Assembly: GCF_001684965.1 (NCBI RefSeq)
Contig: NZ_MAYG01000001.1
Span: 3,224,001-3,288,000, forward strand
Direction of reading: 5' to 3'
Origin: Chryseobacterium arthrosphaerae
GTDB lineage: Bacteria; Bacteroidota; Bacteroidia; Flavobacteriales; Weeksellaceae
Length of the DNA stretch: 64,000 bases
In this document: in pieces, positions 44,683-51,638 of the stretch
How the letters are laid out: each line of letters starts with the position of its first letter
Position numbering within the stretch: position 1 is the stretch's first letter
Notes under the pieces: model-generated
The model's database searches: none
What the model was told of the DNA's origin: nothing
What the model saw: only the letters and a program-made list of their open reading frames with translations
Made by a program: the position numbers and the translations under genes

Positions 44683-46014
44683 ATGAAAAGCAAACTATTA
44701 CTCTTAACAGGATGCCTTGTTCTGGCACTGAATTCATGTAGATCGGATATTGAAAACGCACAAGCAGATTCAATAGATCAAACAACGACACAGTTGGACA
44801 ATACAAAGATTCACAAATTATTAATTAACGGAAAATACACCTATGTTAATGAAGTAAATGGTGAATATTTTTATGCAGACGATATTACTATTAGCTCCGA
44901 GCAGTTTAATAATTTAAAGATGCAGGCCAACTCCGGAATATCCACAGCAGAAAAAAGTACCATTGTAAGCTCCTTTATTAAGACATGGCCGGATGCCACA
45001 GTCTACTATACATTACCCAGCCAGGGAACTATGAGCACTCAGAATTACAACACGTTCCTTACCAATATCAACAAAGCGTTTGATATGATCTCTTCTCAAA
45101 CCAATATGCAGTTTGTTGAACGTACCAATCAAACAGAATACATCACCTTTACTTATACAACATCCAACAGTTCTCCGCTTGGATGGCAAAAAAACAGAGT
45201 TAACGGTATTAAAATTTATAATATTACTTATCCGGCAATTATTGCTCACGAAGTAATGCATTCTATGGGAATCATGCACGAACAGTGCCGTCCGGACCGG
45301 GACCAGTATATTATTGTAGATGTTAACAAAGCAGTAGAAGGAAGCCGCCATAACTTCAACCTTTACAATGATTATGCAGGACATGGTGCGTTTGATTTCG
45401 GTTCAGTCATGATGTATCAATCTACAGATTTTGCCATAGACCCTAGCCAGCCTGTAATGACTAAGCTGGACGGATCCACTTTTACCAAGCAAAGGACAGG
45501 GTTATCTGCCGGTGATTATGCTGGAATAAATCATTTGTACGGACCTGTAAATGTCAGCTCTGCAATCAACGGAACCTATACAATGACAACAGCATTAGCG
45601 AATGATAAAAATGTAGATATTACCGGAAGTTCCACGACAGACGGCACCAGTATCATTTTATATTCATCTTCTACAGGGAATAACCAGAGATTTACCTTCA
45701 CCAAATCAGATCATGGATATTATATCATCAAATCTATACTGGATCCTACAAAAGTGTTAACCGTAAAAGGTAACGGGACAACAAATGGAACTGCTGTTGA
45801 ACTAAGAACCAATTCCGATGCGGATTCTCAGAAATGGTTATTATTCAATCTGGGAAATAATGGCTTTGGATTCGCTCCCAAGAATGCACCGGCCCTGAGA
45901 TTAGAGGTAAAAGATGGCTTAACGACCAATCTTACCCCTATTGTAATCGGCACTACAAACCAAACAGTTCAGCCCTCTACAAAGCAGCGCTTTATACTTA
46001 CAAAAGTTAACTAA
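44683..46014 (+). CDS. Astacin-family (M12A) zinc metalloprotease lipoprotein with ricin-type lectin domain
   Basis: A 443-residue exported zinc endopeptidase. The signal sequence ends in a lipobox (LALNSC), so it is probably a lipoprotein. A propeptide precedes the astacin catalytic domain, which carries the full motif HEVMHSMGIMHEQCRPDRD beginning at His189 and the Met-turn SVMMYQS. The C-terminal ~150 residues form a ricin-B-type beta-trefoil (NGTYTMTTALANDKNVDITG, NNQRFTFTKSDHGYYIIKS, SQKWLLF). The combination resembles flavastacin of Elizabethkingia, which cleaves before Asp. That specificity is only inferred here. It has its own terminator and a long AT-rich leader region. Confidence 0.9.
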   Translation: MKSKLLLLTGCLVLALNSCRSDIENAQADSIDQTTTQLDNTKIHKLLINGKYTYVNEVNGEYFYADDITISSEQFNNLKMQANSGISTAEKSTIVSSFIKTWPDATVYYTLPSQGTMSTQNYNTFLTNINKAFDMISSQTNMQFVERTNQTEYITFTYTTSNSSPLGWQKNRVNGIKIYNITYPAIIAHEVMHSMGIMHEQCRPDRDQYIIVDVNKAVEGSRHNFNLYNDYAGHGAFDFGSVMMYQSTDFAIDPSQPVMTKLDGSTFTKQRTGLSAGDYAGINHLYGPVNVSSAINGTYTMTTALANDKNVDITGSSTTDGTSIILYSSSTGNNQRFTFTKSDHGYYIIKSILDPTKVLTVKGNGTTNGTAVELRTNSDADSQKWLLFNLGNNGFGFAPKNAPALRLEVKDGLTTNLTPIVIGTTNQTVQPSTKQRFILTKVN

Positions 46015-46087: not shown

Positions 46088-47362
46088 TTATTTATTGGTC
46101 AGCTTCAAAATCTGCTCTCTTCCCGGCCCCGTAGAAAGATAGCCTACAGGAATCTCCAGTTCTGCTTCCAGAAATGATAAGAAACTGATTACTTCCCGGG
46201 GCAGTTCAGCGGCATTTTTCATGTTGGAAAAATCGGCGTTCCATCCCTCCATCCATTTCAGTACAGGTCTTGCATTTTCGGGAAGCGTACCGGCGACCGG
46301 GATCATTTCTCCTTCCAGTTCATAATGAGTACAGACCGCTACAGATTTCAATCCGCTCAATACGTCTGCTTTAGTCAGAACAAGCTGAGTAACACCATTG
46401 ATCATTACTGCATATTTCAGTGCCGGAAGATCCAGCCAGCCTATTCTTCGTGGGCGGCCGGTATTGGAGCCGAATTCATTCCCTTTCATTCTGAGATCAT
46501 CCCCAAATTCGTCTAAAAGTTCCGTTGGAAAAGCTCCGTTCCCTACCCTCGTACAATAAGCTTTGGCAATCCCATAAATCTCACCGATCTTTTTCGGTGA
46601 AATTCCTAATCCGCTGCTTGCCCCCGATGCTGTGGTTGAAGAGGATGTTACATACGGATAAGTACCATGATCAATATCCAGCATGGCTGCCTGAGATCCT
46701 TCCGCCAATACTTTTTTACCTTCGGATAAAGCCTTATTGAGATAAATTTCAGTTTCTGTACATGTGAATTTTTTAAGAAAGTCCACGGCCTCAAAAAATT
46801 CTTTAGTGATTTCTTCCAAGGCAGGCAAAACAATCATTCCTCCATCTTCCAGCATCTTATAATCTCTTTCAAGAATATGCTGTGCCCTGCTCTGGAAATC
46901 CGGAGATCCGATATCCCCCACTCTCAGATTCTGTCTTAATATTTTATTGGAATACGCCTGTGCAATCCCGTTTTTTGTCGTTCCAATGGTAGTGTACTCC
47001 GGATTTTCTTCCATAAAAATATCCAGAAGCTTATGCGTAGGCATTACCAGATGAGCTTTTTTAGAAATAATGATATTTTTTTCCGGTTGAACGGTATGAT
47101 CAAAGGCCTGAAGATTCAGGATCTCTTTTTTAAAACTTACAGGATCAAGAACCGTTCCTGTACCAATGATATTCTGTACTTCTTTCATAAAGATCCCCGA
47201 AGGAATCATTTTAAGCGTTATTTTCCGCCCGTTTCTTTCTATGCTGTGCCCAGCATTAGATCCGCCGTTAAAACGCGCTGTAATGTCATAATTTTCACTG
47301 ATAAGATCAATAAACTTTCCCTTACCTTCATCTCCCCACTGCAATCCCAGGACAATATCCAT
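46088..47362 (-). CDS. purA: Divergent adenylosuccinate synthetase
   Basis: Condenses IMP and aspartate, using GTP, to adenylosuccinate on the way to AMP. The ATG at 47362 gives MDIVLGLQWGDEGKGKF, the family start, and 424 residues. An upstream ATG lies too close to the predicted promoter. Retained are catalytic Asp11 in the P-loop, His39 in SNAGHS, HGTYPYVTSSSTTASGASSGLG, GRPRRIGWLDL and LTKADVLSGL. Unusual is residues 127-137, GTTKNGIAQAY, where typical enzymes read GTTxRGIGPAY; STGPGR near the end replaces STGPDR. It may be a second, regulated copy. It is preceded by a 20-base box shared with the Crp/Fnr gene. Confidence 0.85.
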   Translation of the reverse strand: MDIVLGLQWGDEGKGKFIDLISENYDITARFNGGSNAGHSIERNGRKITLKMIPSGIFMKEVQNIIGTGTVLDPVSFKKEILNLQAFDHTVQPEKNIIISKKAHLVMPTHKLLDIFMEENPEYTTIGTTKNGIAQAYSNKILRQNLRVGDIGSPDFQSRAQHILERDYKMLEDGGMIVLPALEEITKEFFEAVDFLKKFTCTETEIYLNKALSEGKKVLAEGSQAAMLDIDHGTYPYVTSSSTTASGASSGLGISPKKIGEIYGIAKAYCTRVGNGAFPTELLDEFGDDLRMKGNEFGSNTGRPRRIGWLDLPALKYAVMINGVTQLVLTKADVLSGLKSVAVCTHYELEGEMIPVAGTLPENARPVLKWMEGWNADFSNMKNAAELPREVISFLSFLEAELEIPVGYLSTGPGREQILKLTNK

Positions 47363-47383: not shown

Positions 47384-47391
47384 CAAAGCTA
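47384..47391 (-). promoter_or_regulatory. -7 element of the purA-like gene (TAGCTTTG)
   Basis: Exact TAnnTTTG match on the minus strand, 21 bases before the start codon and 19 bases downstream of the 20-base box. Confidence 0.65.
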
Positions 47392-47410
47392 GGGAAGATG
47401 AGAAGGGAGG

Positions 47411-47430
47411 CCATTGTCATTTGGCAAAAA
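47411..47430 (-). promoter_or_regulatory. Putative Crp/Fnr operator, copy 1 (purA-like promoter)
   Basis: A 20-base sequence whose core TTGCCAAATGACAA is a near-palindrome (TTGyCA-nn-TGrCAA), as expected for a Crp/Fnr dimer. It is identical to the copy at 48219-48238. Its centre is about 42 bases upstream of the assumed transcription start, a class II activator position. Confidence 0.6.
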
Positions 47431-47504
47431 ACGTATGAGGTTATGACTGATGAAAATATTGATGATTATGAAGCCAGGATTCCGTTCAGATTATTGCTTT
47501 GATA

Positions 47505-47573
47505 AGTTTCGGCTAAAGCCAATGGAATTTTTTGAAACAACAGGAACGGGCTAAAGCCCGTCCTAATTGTATA
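47505..47573. repeat. Dispersed double-hairpin repeat (GGCTAAAGCC family), copy A
   Basis: Two palindromes, GGCTAAAGCC (47511-47520) and ACGGGCTAAAGCCCGT (47546-47561), 25 bases apart. The same arrangement recurs at 59594-59660. It lies between the Crp/Fnr gene and the purA-like promoter. The core motif is familiar from Chryseobacterium intergenic repeats. Confidence 0.75.
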
Positions 47574-47589
47574 TTTATGGGCACATTGC

Positions 47590-48159
47590 TCACAAAATAT
47601 TTCTTCTGATCCTGCTCAGTGATGAAGGGGTAATCCCCAGGTAAGACGCCAGCATAGATTGCGGGACTCTGTTGGCCAGGCCGGGGTAATGGTTTAAAAA
47701 ATGGATATAGCGGGATTTTGCATCCTGATTCAGCATAATGCTCGCCACCTTAAGTTTGTTTTCTGCAACAAAACCATGAATTCTCGCAAATAAAACCGGC
47801 CATATCGTAATTTTCTCTTCCAGGATCTTAAAGGTATTAAGATCTATCACAAGTAATACGGCGTCTGTAATAGCTTCAATATATTCATGGGCAGGAAGCT
47901 GATCAGTAAAGCCCTGGAAATCTCCGATGAACCTTCCTTCATAGATAAAATAGCGGGTAAAATCATCTCCCTGCCTGTTATAATATAAAGACCGGAACAC
48001 TCCTTCTTTTACAAAAGCAATTCTTTGGCTTACCTTTCCTGCTTCTATAAAGGGATCTCCCTTCTGAACGGTTATTTCCTGAATTCCTTTAGCAATCAAA
48101 AGTTCATCCTGTGCATTCAGGATTCCAAATTTTCTGATGTAATTAAAAAGTTCTTCCAT
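47590..48159 (-). CDS. Crp/Fnr-family transcriptional regulator
   Basis: A 189-residue regulator. The N-terminal cyclic-nucleotide-binding-type beta-roll runs from ELLIAKGIQEITVQKGDPFIEAGKVSQRIAFVKEGVFRSLY to about residue 110. A dimerisation helix follows, and a C-terminal winged helix-turn-helix contains the recognition segment PQSMLASYLGITPSSLSRIRR. It has no Fnr-type cysteine cluster, and the phosphate-binding residues for cAMP are not obvious, so the ligand is unknown. I prefer the ATG at 48159; the ATG at 48180 would lie only ~6 bases after the predicted transcription start. The 20-base box upstream of its promoter suggests autoregulation. Confidence 0.88.
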   Translation of the reverse strand: MEELFNYIRKFGILNAQDELLIAKGIQEITVQKGDPFIEAGKVSQRIAFVKEGVFRSLYYNRQGDDFTRYFIYEGRFIGDFQGFTDQLPAHEYIEAITDAVLLVIDLNTFKILEEKITIWPVLFARIHGFVAENKLKVASIMLNQDAKSRYIHFLNHYPGLANRVPQSMLASYLGITPSSLSRIRRNIL

Positions 48160-48191
48160 GTCTTTGCTGTATCCGCCCATTTACGGAAAGA

Positions 48192-48199
48192 TAAAGGTA
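48192..48199 (-). promoter_or_regulatory. -7-like element of the Crp/Fnr gene (TACCTTTA)
   Basis: Seven of eight positions fit TAnnTTTG. It lies exactly 19 bases downstream of the 20-base box, the same spacing as at the purA-like promoter. Confidence 0.5.
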
Positions 48200-48218
48200 T
48201 AAAAGTCGCCCGGAAAAA

Positions 48219-48238
48219 CCATTGTCATTTGGCAAAAA
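48219..48238 (-). promoter_or_regulatory. Putative Crp/Fnr operator, copy 2 (Crp/Fnr gene and ku divergent region)
   Basis: Identical over 20 bases to 47411-47430. It sits in the 148-base divergent region between the regulator and ku. The near-palindrome could act in both directions, but no matching -7 element was found for ku. Confidence 0.6.
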
Positions 48239-48307: not shown

Positions 48308-49093
48308 ATGAAAGCAATCTGGAATGGCGCCATTGGCTTCGGTTTAGTAAATATTCCTGTTAAGATTTACTCTGCGACGGAGACCAGCAAATTGGACCTT
48401 GATATGCTCGATAAATCCGATTATTCCAACATCCGGTTTAAAAGAGTGAATGAAAATACAGGAAAAGAAGTAAAATGGGAAAACATCGTGAAAGGTTATC
48501 TCATGGATGACAAATATATCGTCTTGGATGAGGAAGATTACGAAGCTGCAAGCCCTGAAAAAACAAAAATCCTTTCTATTGATCAGTTTGTAAAGGAAGA
48601 AGAAGTAGACAGTATTTATTTTGAGACTCCTTACTATTTGGAGCCTCAGAAAAATGGAGAGAGTGCATACAGGCTTTTGTTAAAGGCACTTGAAGAAACC
48701 CAAATGGTAGGAGTAGGCACATTTGTCCTCCGGGAAAGTGAAGCCATTGGGCTGATCCGGCCTTATAAAAATGACATTCTGATTTTGAACCGCCTGAGGT
48801 TTGATCAGGAGATCAGGGATTATTCGGATTTAAAAATACCTGCCCATAAAGCTCCGAAGCCCGCTGAGCTGAAAATGGCTATCAATCTTATTGAACAGCT
48901 TTCTCAGGATTTTGATCCTGCCATGTATAAAGATACGTATTCTGATGATCTATTGAAGATCATCAAGCAGAAAGCGAAAGGTAAAAGCAGTAAAGCCAAA
49001 AAGGCCCTTCCTGCCAAAGAAGGTAAAGTGATTGACCTTATGGCCCAGCTAAAGGCCAGTCTGAACAGTTCCAAATCTAAATCCGCATCGTAA
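48308..49093 (+). CDS. ku: Non-homologous end-joining protein Ku
   Basis: Homodimeric ring that binds double-strand DNA ends and recruits LigD. The 261-residue protein starts MKAIWNGAIGFGLVNIPVKIYSAT, the bacterial Ku signature. It covers the Ku core (DYSNIRFKRVNENTGKEVKWENIVKGY, YFETPYYLEPQKNGESAYRLLLKAL, GVGTFVLRESEAIGLIRPY) and ends in a lysine/serine-rich tail. Its stop codon overlaps the ligD start by one base (TAATG), which implies translational coupling. The usual Bacteroidota ku-ligD arrangement is present. Confidence 0.96.
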   Translation: MKAIWNGAIGFGLVNIPVKIYSATETSKLDLDMLDKSDYSNIRFKRVNENTGKEVKWENIVKGYLMDDKYIVLDEEDYEAASPEKTKILSIDQFVKEEEVDSIYFETPYYLEPQKNGESAYRLLLKALEETQMVGVGTFVLRESEAIGLIRPYKNDILILNRLRFDQEIRDYSDLKIPAHKAPKPAELKMAINLIEQLSQDFDPAMYKDTYSDDLLKIIKQKAKGKSSKAKKALPAKEGKVIDLMAQLKASLNSSKSKSAS

Positions 49094-49698
49094 TGGCTCT
49101 TAAAGATTATCATAACAAACGTAAGTTCGATGAAACCAGCGAACCCAAAGGAAAAACAAAAAAAAGCAAAGACAAACTTATTTTTGTGATTCAAAGGCAT
49201 GCTGCCAGCAGACTTCACTATGATTTCAGGCTGGAAATGGAAGGGGTGCTGAAAAGCTGGGCCGTTCCCAAAGGCCCCTCACTGGATCCAAAAGACAAAC
49301 GCCTGGCAATGATGGTAGAAGATCACCCGTACGATTATAAAGATTTTGAGGGAAATATTCCTGAGGGAAATTATGGAGCCGGACAGGTTGAGGTATGGGA
49401 CAGCGGAACTTATGAACCATTAGATGAAAATTCCAGACTTTCTGATGAAAAGGAACTGCTGAAGGAATTACATGCAGGCTCCTTAAAATTTATCTTGCAT
49501 GGTAAAAAACTTAAAGGAGAATTTGCCCTGGTCAAAATGAAAAATTCTGAAGACAATGCATGGCTTCTGATCAAACATAAGGATGAGTTTGCTGAAAGTC
49601 CTTATGATGCTGAAGAAAACACCTCACCAAAATCTTTGGTCACCCAATTCTTAGAGGAAAAAAAAAGCCTGAAAAAAAGCGGAAAAAAGAAGTCATAA
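49093..49698 (+). CDS. ligD: LigD 3'-phosphoesterase domain (N-terminal part of a split ligD)
   Basis: A 201-residue open frame holding only the phosphoesterase domain of DNA ligase D, which trims 3' ends before joining. The domain motif FVIQRHAASRLHYDFRLEMEGVLKSWAVPKGPS carries the expected His and Asp residues, and GNYGAGQVEVWDSGTYE and KGEFALVKM follow. The frame ends in a Lys-rich tail just before the ligase domain. In the -1 frame the sequence stays open from 49614 into the ligase-polymerase part. A single -1 shift, most simply at the nine-A run 49658-49666, would join the two into an 848-residue LigD. Confidence 0.9.
   Translation: MALKDYHNKRKFDETSEPKGKTKKSKDKLIFVIQRHAASRLHYDFRLEMEGVLKSWAVPKGPSLDPKDKRLAMMVEDHPYDYKDFEGNIPEGNYGAGQVEVWDSGTYEPLDENSRLSDEKELLKELHAGSLKFILHGKKLKGEFALVKMKNSEDNAWLLIKHKDEFAESPYDAEENTSPKSLVTQFLEEKKSLKKSGKKKS
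49659..49666 (+). promoter_or_regulatory. Candidate -1 frameshift site (A AAA AAA G) in ligD
   Basis: Within a run of nine A residues the heptamer A AAA AAA is in register with the phosphoesterase frame (codons GAA AAA AAA AGC). A -1 slip here enters the ligase-polymerase frame directly. An indel error or transcriptional slippage at the same run would have the same effect. Confidence 0.45.
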
Positions 49699-49769
49699 CT
49701 TCGGAAAAACGGTTTCAGAAATTCAATTCCCTGACTAACGAAAAAAAATTAAAATCCTTTATCAGGCCT

Positions 49770-51638
49770 ATGCTTGCGAGACTTTCTGAAGAAGCATTTG
49801 ATGATAAGGACTGGGTTTTTGAAATTAAGTGGGACGGCTACAGGGCTATTGCAGACCTCAGCCGGGATACTCCCCTTTTTTACTCCCGGAACGGCATTTC
49901 ATTCATACCGAAATTTGACAAAATAGCTCAGGATTTCAAACAGCAAAAGCATCAGATGATCCTGGATGGTGAAGTGGTAGCCTATGACGATCAGGGAAAG
50001 CCTAATTTTCAGCTTTTACAGCAAATCGGGGATAATCCCAATCTTGCTCTCGTTTATCAGGTTTTTGACATCCTCTGGCTGAACGGCCATTCCACGGAAG
50101 AACTTCCGCTTATTCAAAGAAAGGAACTTTTAAAAGAGGCACTGGTGGAAACCGATGTCATCAAATACTGTGAACATATTCCGGAAAAAGGTATTGCATT
50201 TTTTGAGCAAATGAAAAAAATGAAACTGGAAGGAATGATCGCCAAACGGGCAGATAGTCAATATGTGGAAAATCACAGAACCAGCGACTGGCTTAAAATC
50301 AAGTTTTCCAATACGGAAGAAGTCATTATCTGCGGATTTACGGAGCCAAGAGGTTCAAGGAAAAGTTTCGGAGCGTTGATTCTTGGAAAGTATATTGACG
50401 GGGAACTGACTTATTGCGGTCATACGGGAACAGGGTTCAATGCTGCTTCTTTACAGGAAATGTACGAAAGGCTCCGGAAACTGGTCATCAAAAGCTCTCC
50501 GTTTACCGATGTTCCTAAAACGAATATGCCTGTAACCTGGACAAAACCTGAACTGGTATGTGAAATCAAATATTCCGAGATCACCAAAGACGGTATCTTC
50601 CGTCATCCGGTATTTATAACAATCCGTGAGGATAAAGAACCTGAACAAATTAACAATTCATCCTTCAACGAAAAACCTAAAGTAATGAAAGCTAAAGCAT
50701 CTTCCAAAAAAACAGAAACTTCCGATAAAGAAAAAGAGATCACTTTAAATAAACATAAAGTGAAACTTACGAATCAGGATAAGGTCTATTTTCCAAAAGA
50801 TGGAATCACTAAAGGAGATGTGATTGAATATTATCAGTCTGTTGCCTCTTATATCTTACCTCATCTGAAGAATCGCCCGCTTTCTCTGAATCGTTTTCCC
50901 AACGGAATTGAAGAACAAAGCTTTTATCAGAAAGATGCAGGTGAACATATTCCGGATTGGATCAAAACTACGGAGGTTTACTCTGAATCGAACGACAAAA
51001 ATATAGACTACATCTACTGCAACGACAAGGCAACCTTAGCCTACCTGAATAATCTAGGCTGCATCGACATGAATCCCTGGAACAGCTCTTTACCGGATCT
51101 GGAACATCCGGATTATCTTGTTTTGGATCTGGACCCTTCCACTAAAAATTCTTTTGATGAAGTGATTGAAACCGCCCTTCAGGTGAATGAAGTTTTAAAA
51201 GCAGCTTCAGTAAAAGGCTATTGTAAAACTTCCGGAAGTACAGGTATTCATATTTACATTCCAATGGGCGGACGTTATGATTTTGATCAGGTAAAAGATT
51301 TTGCCCACATTCTGATGAAACAGGTCAATGAAAAAATACCGAAGATCACCACCCTGGAAAGGAGTCTTCAAAAAAGAGACCCAAAGAAAATTTATCTGGA
51401 TTATCTTCAGAACAGGACCGGGCAAACCCTGGCCAGTGCTTATAGTTTGCGACCTAAACAAGGTGCTTCCGTTTCCATGCCCTTGGATTGGGACGAGCTG
51501 AAGCCGGGATTACAACCTACAGATTTTAACATTCATAATGCGCTGGATAGGATCAAAGAAAAAGGAGATCTATTTAAGCCTGTTTTAGGCAAAGGAATTG
51601 ATATGATGAAGGTACTGGAGTTTTTACAGGGGTCATAA
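49770..51638 (+). CDS. ligD: LigD ligase and polymerase domains (C-terminal part of a split ligD)
   Basis: Seals and fills double-strand breaks with Ku. Counting from the first ATG (622 residues), the adenylation lysine is Lys20 in FEIKWDGYR, so this ATG lies inside the conserved ligase start (FIRPMLARL) and is unlikely to be the true initiation site. Ligase motifs LDGEVVAYD, EGMIAKRADSQY and WLKIKF follow, then an OB fold. From about residue 330 comes the primase-like polymerase domain with DYLVLDLDPS, KTSGSTGIHIYIPMG and DYLQNRTGQTLASAYSLRP. The frame is open upstream to 49614, meeting the phosphoesterase part in a -1 relation. A terminator follows. Confidence 0.92.
   Translation: MLARLSEEAFDDKDWVFEIKWDGYRAIADLSRDTPLFYSRNGISFIPKFDKIAQDFKQQKHQMILDGEVVAYDDQGKPNFQLLQQIGDNPNLALVYQVFDILWLNGHSTEELPLIQRKELLKEALVETDVIKYCEHIPEKGIAFFEQMKKMKLEGMIAKRADSQYVENHRTSDWLKIKFSNTEEVIICGFTEPRGSRKSFGALILGKYIDGELTYCGHTGTGFNAASLQEMYERLRKLVIKSSPFTDVPKTNMPVTWTKPELVCEIKYSEITKDGIFRHPVFITIREDKEPEQINNSSFNEKPKVMKAKASSKKTETSDKEKEITLNKHKVKLTNQDKVYFPKDGITKGDVIEYYQSVASYILPHLKNRPLSLNRFPNGIEEQSFYQKDAGEHIPDWIKTTEVYSESNDKNIDYIYCNDKATLAYLNNLGCIDMNPWNSSLPDLEHPDYLVLDLDPSTKNSFDEVIETALQVNEVLKAASVKGYCKTSGSTGIHIYIPMGGRYDFDQVKDFAHILMKQVNEKIPKITTLERSLQKRDPKKIYLDYLQNRTGQTLASAYSLRPKQGASVSMPLDWDELKPGLQPTDFNIHNALDRIKEKGDLFKPVLGKGIDMMKVLEFLQGS

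What the first reader, a model, noticed from the sequence alone, without database searches (positions are those of the whole stretch)
47384..48238. Identical 20-base near-palindromic box at the same distance from two -7 elements: a candidate Crp/Fnr mini-regulon with a purA-like gene
Read directly: the 20-mer at 47411-47430 recurs exactly at 48219-48238. Each copy is followed on the minus strand, after exactly 19 bases, by a -7 element: TAGCTTTG before the purA-like gene and TACCTTTA before the Crp/Fnr gene. The core TTGCCAAATGACAA has the dyad TTGyCA-nn-TGrCAA. Known for Crp/Fnr proteins: they bind such dyads, and class II activation works from sites centred near -41. With the start placed about 6 bases after the -7 element, both sites fall near -42. 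Inference: the regulator controls itself and the divergent adenylosuccinate synthetase, and perhaps ku-ligD on the other side.
Basis: partly seen in the sequence, partly recalled or inferred. Interest (0 to 1): 0.75.

Follow-up and report, generated by a model that had tools for sequence, protein, structure and literature searches.

The report
Crp-type regulator with spare purA
A bacterium of the Chryseobacterium group carries a small gene switch that probably controls both itself and a spare copy of a purine-making enzyme through the same DNA tag, and the way this tag varies between related switches points to the amino acid that reads it.

Summary
At up to 3 mismatches the 5.05 Mb genome holds only these two. 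At the fixed spacing the box is kept in 40 of 40 crp and 39 of 40 purA2 promoters (39 named Chryseobacterium loci plus the window; up to 8 of 20 mismatches allowed; one crp box, L032, is a base short). The dyad centre falls at -41.5, the class II position, since TAnnTTTG lies at -12 to -5 in Flavobacterium (PMC9723704, passages).

Regulator and PurA paralogue occur in the same 46 of 246 family genomes. The strongest evidence is covariation in related Crp cassettes: Ser in the recognition helix goes with TTGyC boxes (62, against 0 TTAyC and 4 neither), Gln with TTAyC boxes (8, against 0).

I conclude that the local Crp/Fnr protein binds both boxes and most likely activates itself and purA2. purA2 is co-directional, not divergent. 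Ku-ligD is probably not a target. Two further sites in the genome are not exclusive to this regulator. Signal and role of PurA2 are unknown; binding is untested.

The parts
48219..48238 (-). 20-nt operator of the crp promoter; core dyad TTGCCAAATGACAA at 48222-48235
48192..48199 (-). -7 element TACCTTTA of the crp promoter; predicted transcription start about 48187
   Evidence: spacing rule from PMC9723704; start inferred
47590..48180 (-). short Crp/Fnr-type regulator gene, 196 aa as listed; likely true start MEELF at about 48159
47411..47430 (-). 20-nt operator of the purA2 promoter; core dyad TTGCCAAATGACAA at 47414-47427
47384..47391 (-). -7 element TAGCTTTG of the purA2 promoter; predicted transcription start about 47379
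   Evidence: start inferred
46088..47362 (-). purA2, second adenylosuccinate synthetase paralogue, with an altered aspartate loop GSNTGRPRR

Best explanation
The 196-aa Crp/Fnr-type protein encoded at 47590-48180 binds the dyad TTGyC-N4-GrCAA as a dimer. It does so at its own promoter and at the promoter of the next gene, purA2. Both sites are centred at -41.5 of a Bacteroidota sigma-A promoter (TAnnTTTG/A), so the likeliest action is class II activation: positive autoregulation plus switching on of a spare adenylosuccinate synthetase. Shown by sequence: the two sites, their uniqueness, geometry and conservation, the co-occurrence of regulator and purA2, and covariation of the recognition helix with the box in related cassettes. 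Inferred: binding, activation rather than repression, and the inducing signal.
For: Only pair in the genome. At the fixed spacing to the -7 element the box is kept in 40 of 40 crp and 39 of 40 purA2 promoters (up to 8 of 20 mismatches allowed; the core TTGYCANNTGRCAA is exact in 31 and 39). The 20-nt box carries 1.72 and 1.87 bits per position against 0.42 and 0.36 for the 40 nt upstream. In 40 genomes core plus spaced -7 element is present in 40 and the reversed control in 0. In 246 family genomes, which overlap the named ones, 46 hold the regulator orthologue (59% identity or more), the same 46 hold PurA2 (E up to 1e-135) and all 46 hold the spaced pattern, against 9 of the other 200. In 8 of those 9 it lies beside another Crp/Fnr gene. 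In two genomes of genus g21 purA2 and crp lie in tandem behind one box (L200, L201). Helix position, 77 proteins: S with TTGyC 62, TTAyC 0, neither 4; Q with TTAyC 8, TTGyC 0; 3 rows unreadable and dropped. In the 20 loci chosen by regulator homology alone: S 14 of 15 TTGyC, Q 7 of 7 TTAyC. The label needs 2 changes on the tree of 44 proteins. Predicted fold Crp/Fnr-like. TAnnTTTG at -12 to -5.
Against: No binding or expression data. 9 of 40 crp promoters lack the exact core: 7 have one TTACC half-site (against the Ser-TTG rule for that half), L032 has a dyad one base short, and L037 has a changed half-site. In L039 the purA2 box is exact but one base closer to the -7 element. The counts ask for both half-sites, so mixed sites fall in neither class. 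28 other Crp/Fnr matches lie in this genome, and paralogues elsewhere use the same core. The 8 Q proteins fall in only two clades, and the starred branches alone do not exclude one origin. A site at -41.5 could also block polymerase.
Confidence: 0.8

Rival explanations
1. The same regulator binds both boxes but represses: it sits over the -33 region, shuts both promoters, and is released by a ligand.
For: The box ends 19 nt before the -7 element and so touches the -33 region; autorepression by local regulators is common (established knowledge). Sequence alone does not give the sign.
Against: The -41.5 placing is kept across the 40 crp and 40 purA2 promoters examined, with L032 and L039 off by one base, and recurs in other cassettes. 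Repressor sites need no such exact phasing. By eye no TTTG stands at -33 of the purA2 promoter (box ends CAATGG), which fits an activator-dependent promoter.
Confidence: 0.15
2. The boxes are bound by another Crp/Fnr paralogue, and the local gene is only one of its targets.
For: 28 further Crp/Fnr matches in the genome. Paralogues at about 40% identity in other genomes use the same TTGyC core. The VOC site persists in 3 of 4 genomes that lack this regulator but keep a close VOC gene.
Against: In this genome the 20-mer is confined to this regulator and its neighbour. Spaced pattern, regulator and purA2 go together in 246 genomes, apart from 9 with the pattern alone. Helix-box covariation in the related cassettes points to the local protein.
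Confidence: 0.08
3. The box is only a promoter element or a dispersed repeat without a regulator.
For: It sits at a fixed distance from the -7 element. The 14-nt core without the -7 element is no rarer than its reversed control in many relatives.
Against: Two exact 20-nt copies in this genome; Y/R changes on both half-sites that keep the dyad; the spaced pattern is absent from 191 of 200 family genomes without the regulator.
Confidence: 0.02

Closest known systems
FNR and CRP (CAP) of Enterobacteria, class II activation
   Same: N-terminal cyclic-nucleotide-binding fold and C-terminal helix-turn-helix; 14-nt dyad with TTG as outer bases, as in FNR TTGAT-N4-ATCAA (recalled); dyad centred at -41.5; the helix position that covaries with the third base of the half-site is the CRP Glu181/FNR Glu209 equivalent (residue numbers and their role recalled).
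   Different: Short (196 aa as listed). No cysteine, so no FNR iron-sulphur cluster (read). cAMP-pocket residues not kept. Ser or Gln instead of Glu in the recognition helix. Bacteroidota -7 promoter.
3dn7, Crp/Fnr-like protein of Cytophaga hutchinsonii
   Same: The one sequence match among solved structures at E up to 0.001 with the single protein and the best with the profile; also found by fold.
   Different: The entry titles seen name no DNA site or target; helix TPEYLSE differs from TPSSLSR.
PurA, adenylosuccinate synthetase
   Same: Passes the Pfam and NCBIfam cut-offs; GDEGKGK, NAGH and TKAD motifs present.
   Different: A second copy, 43% identical to the housekeeping one. GSNTGRPRR instead of GATTGRPRR in the aspartate loop in all 44 readable copies; GTTkNG instead of GTTKKG, N in at least 95% of 44 rows.

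Membership tests
Crp/Fnr superfamily | N-terminal cyclic-nucleotide-binding-like domain | tested here: met
   PF00027, 33.9 bits against cut-off 27.5
Crp/Fnr superfamily | C-terminal helix-turn-helix | tested here: met
   No Pfam HTH match, but the model (mean pLDDT 91.9) has H174-181 and H185-195 and Foldseek aligns it with FNR over 196 columns, TMq 0.79; motif LGITPSSLSR
CRP (cAMP-responsive) | cAMP phosphate-binding residues (Glu72, Arg82, Ser83; recalled) | tested here: not met
   CAP chains read GELG...ERSAW where the window protein reads GDFQGFTDQLPAHEY
FNR (oxygen-responsive) | Four cysteines for the iron-sulphur cluster (recalled) | tested here: not met
   No cysteine in the 196-aa protein
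Class II activator promoter | Site centred at -41.5 on the sigma-A promoter | tested here: met
   Centre 29.5 nt before T of TAnnTTTR; TAnnTTTG at -12 to -5 in F. psychrophilum. The start site was not mapped in this species
Class II activator promoter | Transcription rises when the regulator binds | not testable with these tools
   needs mutant or reporter data
Adenylosuccinate synthetase (PurA) | Family profile above curated cut-off | tested here: met
   TIGR00184 442.2 against 395.55; PF00709 499.4 against 27
Adenylosuccinate synthetase (PurA) | Aspartate-loop residues as in characterised enzymes | tested here: not met
   GSNTGRPRR in 44 of 44 readable PurA2 against GATTGRPRR in the housekeeping copy and GTTTGRPRR in two enzymes of the PDB (1dj2, 1dj3); effect on activity unknown

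The most novel reading that the evidence does not exclude
Bacteroidota hold a whole class of one-target cassettes: a short Crp/Fnr protein and its neighbour, each behind the same dyad at -41.5, with the third base of the half-site set by one helix residue (Ser or Thr for G, Gln for A). Many targets are detoxifying oxidoreductases. The purA2 cassette is an inducible, inhibitor-tolerant spare adenylosuccinate synthetase, switched on when the housekeeping enzyme is blocked, for instance by an aspartate analogue made by a competitor.
Probability: 0.2. Interest if true: 0.75.

Novelty: new member of a known kind. Interest (0 to 1): 0.5.

Why it matters
This genome alone has 29 matches to this short Crp/Fnr type; I could not check what is published on their targets. 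Because many such cassettes carry their own answer (one or two copies of the site at a fixed distance from the -7 element), regulator, operator and target can be paired from sequence alone, and a DNA-recognition rule can be read off and tested. It also gives a testable lead on why these bacteria keep a second adenylosuccinate synthetase with a changed aspartate loop.

Tried and rejected
Ku-ligD as target: rejected as likely. tblastn at 1e-10 finds no ku within the 5-kb flank in 13 of 39 loci (a 14th, L030, has only a fragment), yet the crp box stays there.

VOC (glyoxalase-like) gene as a third target (L045; 14 of 40 genomes by pattern, downstream gene checked in 11): not accepted as specific. 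Of 40 regulator-less genomes 15 have a VOC match; 3 of the 4 close ones (70-79% identity) keep an 11-of-12 site with the same geometry, and the other 11 (48-65%) reach at most 9 of 12 (the start in L243 was probably misplaced). It may belong to the L063-type regulator.

DUF2807 lipoprotein as a fourth target (L046; 7 of 40 genomes, gene checked in 5): left open. One search found it in 39 of 40 chosen genomes; of the 30 loci fetched, 11 of 19 regulator-bearing (chosen for lacking the strict site) and 1 of 11 regulator-less have an 11-of-12 site with the geometry.

A box rule for all 29 Crp/Fnr genes of this genome: mostly nothing. Only L049, L056, L063 and L070 gave a strict dyad with the geometry. 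L056 (Gln) and L063 (Thr) fit the rule; L070 (Glu, helix without the Arg) has TTAAG and does not fit in any simple way.

Spread of PurA2 beyond the family: the plasmid collection gave only matches under 60% identity; the large protein database could not be asked.

Literature: only paper searches were answered; I saw both listings and, of PMC9723704, passages only. I make no claim that this regulon is absent from print.

Full report
OBSERVATION. The window lies in a 5.05 Mb genome. The 39 named loci found with the regulator protein, by a search that reaches close relatives only, are all Chryseobacterium. Read on the minus strand, TTTTTGCCAAATGACAATGG stands at 48219-48238 before the Crp/Fnr gene and at 47411-47430 before a purA-like gene; 19 nt later come TACCTTTA and TAGCTTTG. 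At up to 3 mismatches the 20-mer has exactly these two places in the genome. The core TTGYCANNTGRCAA has 4 places (reversed control 1), and all 4 have TANNTTTR exactly 22 nt after the core. Base composition predicts 2.9 strand-hits (about 1.5 places) for the core and 0.004 for the core with the spaced -7 element. In relatives the core alone is no rarer than its reversed control in many genomes, so the spacing to the -7 element is what makes the site specific.

GENES. The regulator has a cyclic-nucleotide-binding domain, a Crp/Fnr fold by prediction (best Foldseek match FNR, TMq 0.79), no cysteine, and lacks the usual cAMP-pocket residues. The neighbour is a second PurA (three PF00709 matches, of 611, 499 and 156 bits), 43% identical to the housekeeping copy. 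Both genes run on the minus strand; 'divergent' is wrong for purA and right only for ku.

GEOMETRY. In Flavobacterium psychrophilum the TAnnTTTG box lies at -12 to -5 (PMC9723704, passages seen). The dyad centre lies 29.5 nt before the T of TAnnTTTR, hence at -41.5, the class II position (class II rule recalled). The start sites here are predicted, not mapped.

CONSERVATION. In all 39 named loci crp is followed by purA2. With the window, 40 crp promoters were scored: 40 have a box at the fixed spacing when up to 8 of 20 mismatches are allowed; 37 have at most 3 mismatches, L005 has 4, L037 5 and L032 6 (its dyad is one base short); 31 have the exact core, 7 have one TTACC half-site. Of 40 purA2 promoters 39 have the box at the fixed spacing, all with the exact core; in L039 the box is exact but one base nearer the -7 element, in a record whose genes are hit in broken pieces. 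Mean information is 1.72 and 1.87 bits in the box against 0.42 and 0.36 in the 40 nt upstream. Genome-wide in 40 genomes the spaced pattern is found in 40 and its reversed control in none.

CO-OCCURRENCE. In 246 genomes drawn from the family (they overlap the named ones), 46 have the regulator at 59% identity or more; 36 further genomes have only matches of 37-44% at E up to 1e-40. PurA2 (E up to 1e-135) is found in exactly the same 46. The spaced pattern is found in those 46 and in 9 others, reversed control 0. In 8 of these 9 it lies beside another Crp/Fnr gene, and in the ninth (L204) before a FUSC-like gene (loci L199, L202-L209). In two genomes of genus g21 the order is box, purA2, crp, with a single box (L200, L201).

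A CASSETTE FAMILY AND A READING RULE. Crp/Fnr proteins about 40% identical to this one stand next to a short-chain dehydrogenase, an aldo-keto reductase or a zinc dehydrogenase; a ketopantoate-reductase-like gene stands beside a more distant one of 29% identity (ten proteins scanned, six of them such neighbours). The dyad stands before the neighbour, before the regulator, or before both (both in 11 of the 21 boxed proteins of the 20 loci), often with a weaker -7 element. Proteins with T-x-S-S-L-S-R in the recognition helix have TTGyC half-sites; proteins with T-Q-Q-S-L-S-R have TTAyC half-sites. Counts over 77 proteins, both half-sites required: S 62 with TTGyC, 0 with TTAyC, 4 with neither; Q 8 with TTAyC, 0 with TTGyC; 3 rows were unreadable because the hit began before an upstream stop (two of them have TTGyC). 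Of the four S proteins with neither, L200 and L201 have their box before purA2 and L199 before its dehydrogenase, outside the stretch scanned; L222_835 showed none. Some of these loci had been chosen for having a box; in the 20 loci chosen by regulator homology only (out of 45 such matches listed), S is 14 of 15 and Q 7 of 7. On a tree of 44 of these proteins the S/Q label needs two changes, so the switch probably happened twice, although the starred branches alone force only one. The residue lines up with Glu in paralogues that bear RETLSR, the position of CRP Glu181 and FNR Glu209, known to read the third base of the TTG half-site (recalled). The 7 crp boxes with one TTACC half-site depart from the rule.

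OTHER SITES. The VOC and DUF2807 sites look like further targets but are not exclusive. A relaxed core (TTGYC-N4-GRCAA with spacing) finds 7 sites in this genome, reversed control 0; over the 44 genomes searched the reversed control has 7 hits in 6 genomes. The 7 sites are the four above, two before tandem VOC genes beside paralogue L063, and one before an alpha/beta-hydrolase-like gene (L284, named by eye). A TTGYCYTRTGRCAAG-type site recurs in most of the 44 genomes (by eye) and may belong to the L063 type of regulator (inference).

PURA2. All 44 readable copies have GSNTGRPRR where the housekeeping copy has GATTGRPRR, and at least 95% of 44 rows have N where the housekeeping copy has the second K of GTTKKG. 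In E. coli these loops hold residues of the aspartate pocket (recalled). The enzyme may therefore be less sensitive to aspartate analogues or prefer another substrate; this is conjecture.

VERDICT. A real, conserved operator pair for a narrow, most likely self-activating Crp/Fnr regulon whose secure members are crp and purA2. Binding is inferred with high confidence, activation with moderate confidence, and the signal and purpose are open. Literature could be searched only in part (answered; seven searches timed out), so I claim nothing about its absence from print.

Noticed in passing
L063 (G000:C1:1796336-1797430): Another Crp/Fnr paralogue (helix TDTSLSR) beside two tandem VOC-like genes, each behind a TTGCC-N4-GrCAAG dyad with the same 22-nt spacing.
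   Followed up: partly
L056, position 1380 (-): Crp/Fnr paralogue with Gln in the helix (TEQSLSR) next to a hydrolase-like gene preceded by TTAACTTAAGTTAA at the class II spacing, in line with the Gln-A rule.
   Followed up: partly
L045:1501-1514 and L046:1501-1514: Two more spaced dyads in this genome, before a glyoxalase-like gene and a DUF2807 lipoprotein gene; conserved in some relatives, the glyoxalase one also without the regulator.
   Followed up: partly
L044 (G000:C12:131024-131986): A third, short PurA homologue (357 aa, about 25% identity to PurA2) of unknown role, near a macro-domain-like gene by eye.
   Followed up: no
window 49093-51638: LigD is split into two open frames (phosphoesterase part, then ligase plus polymerase part) in different reading frames, 677 nt between their starts, as in relatives such as L002 and L008.
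   Followed up: no
window 44683-46014: Astacin-type metalloprotease with a ricin-like lectin domain, convergent to purA2 and present beside it in many relatives; the NCBIfam profile LegP matches far below its cut-off.
   Followed up: no
L204:2225, L113:2001: A TTGCCAATTGACAA dyad with class II spacing before a FUSC-like exporter gene, also in a genome without this regulator (G202).
   Followed up: no
L039: The record of Chryseobacterium sp. E1 is hit in broken pieces for several genes here, which suggests indel errors in that assembly.
   Followed up: no
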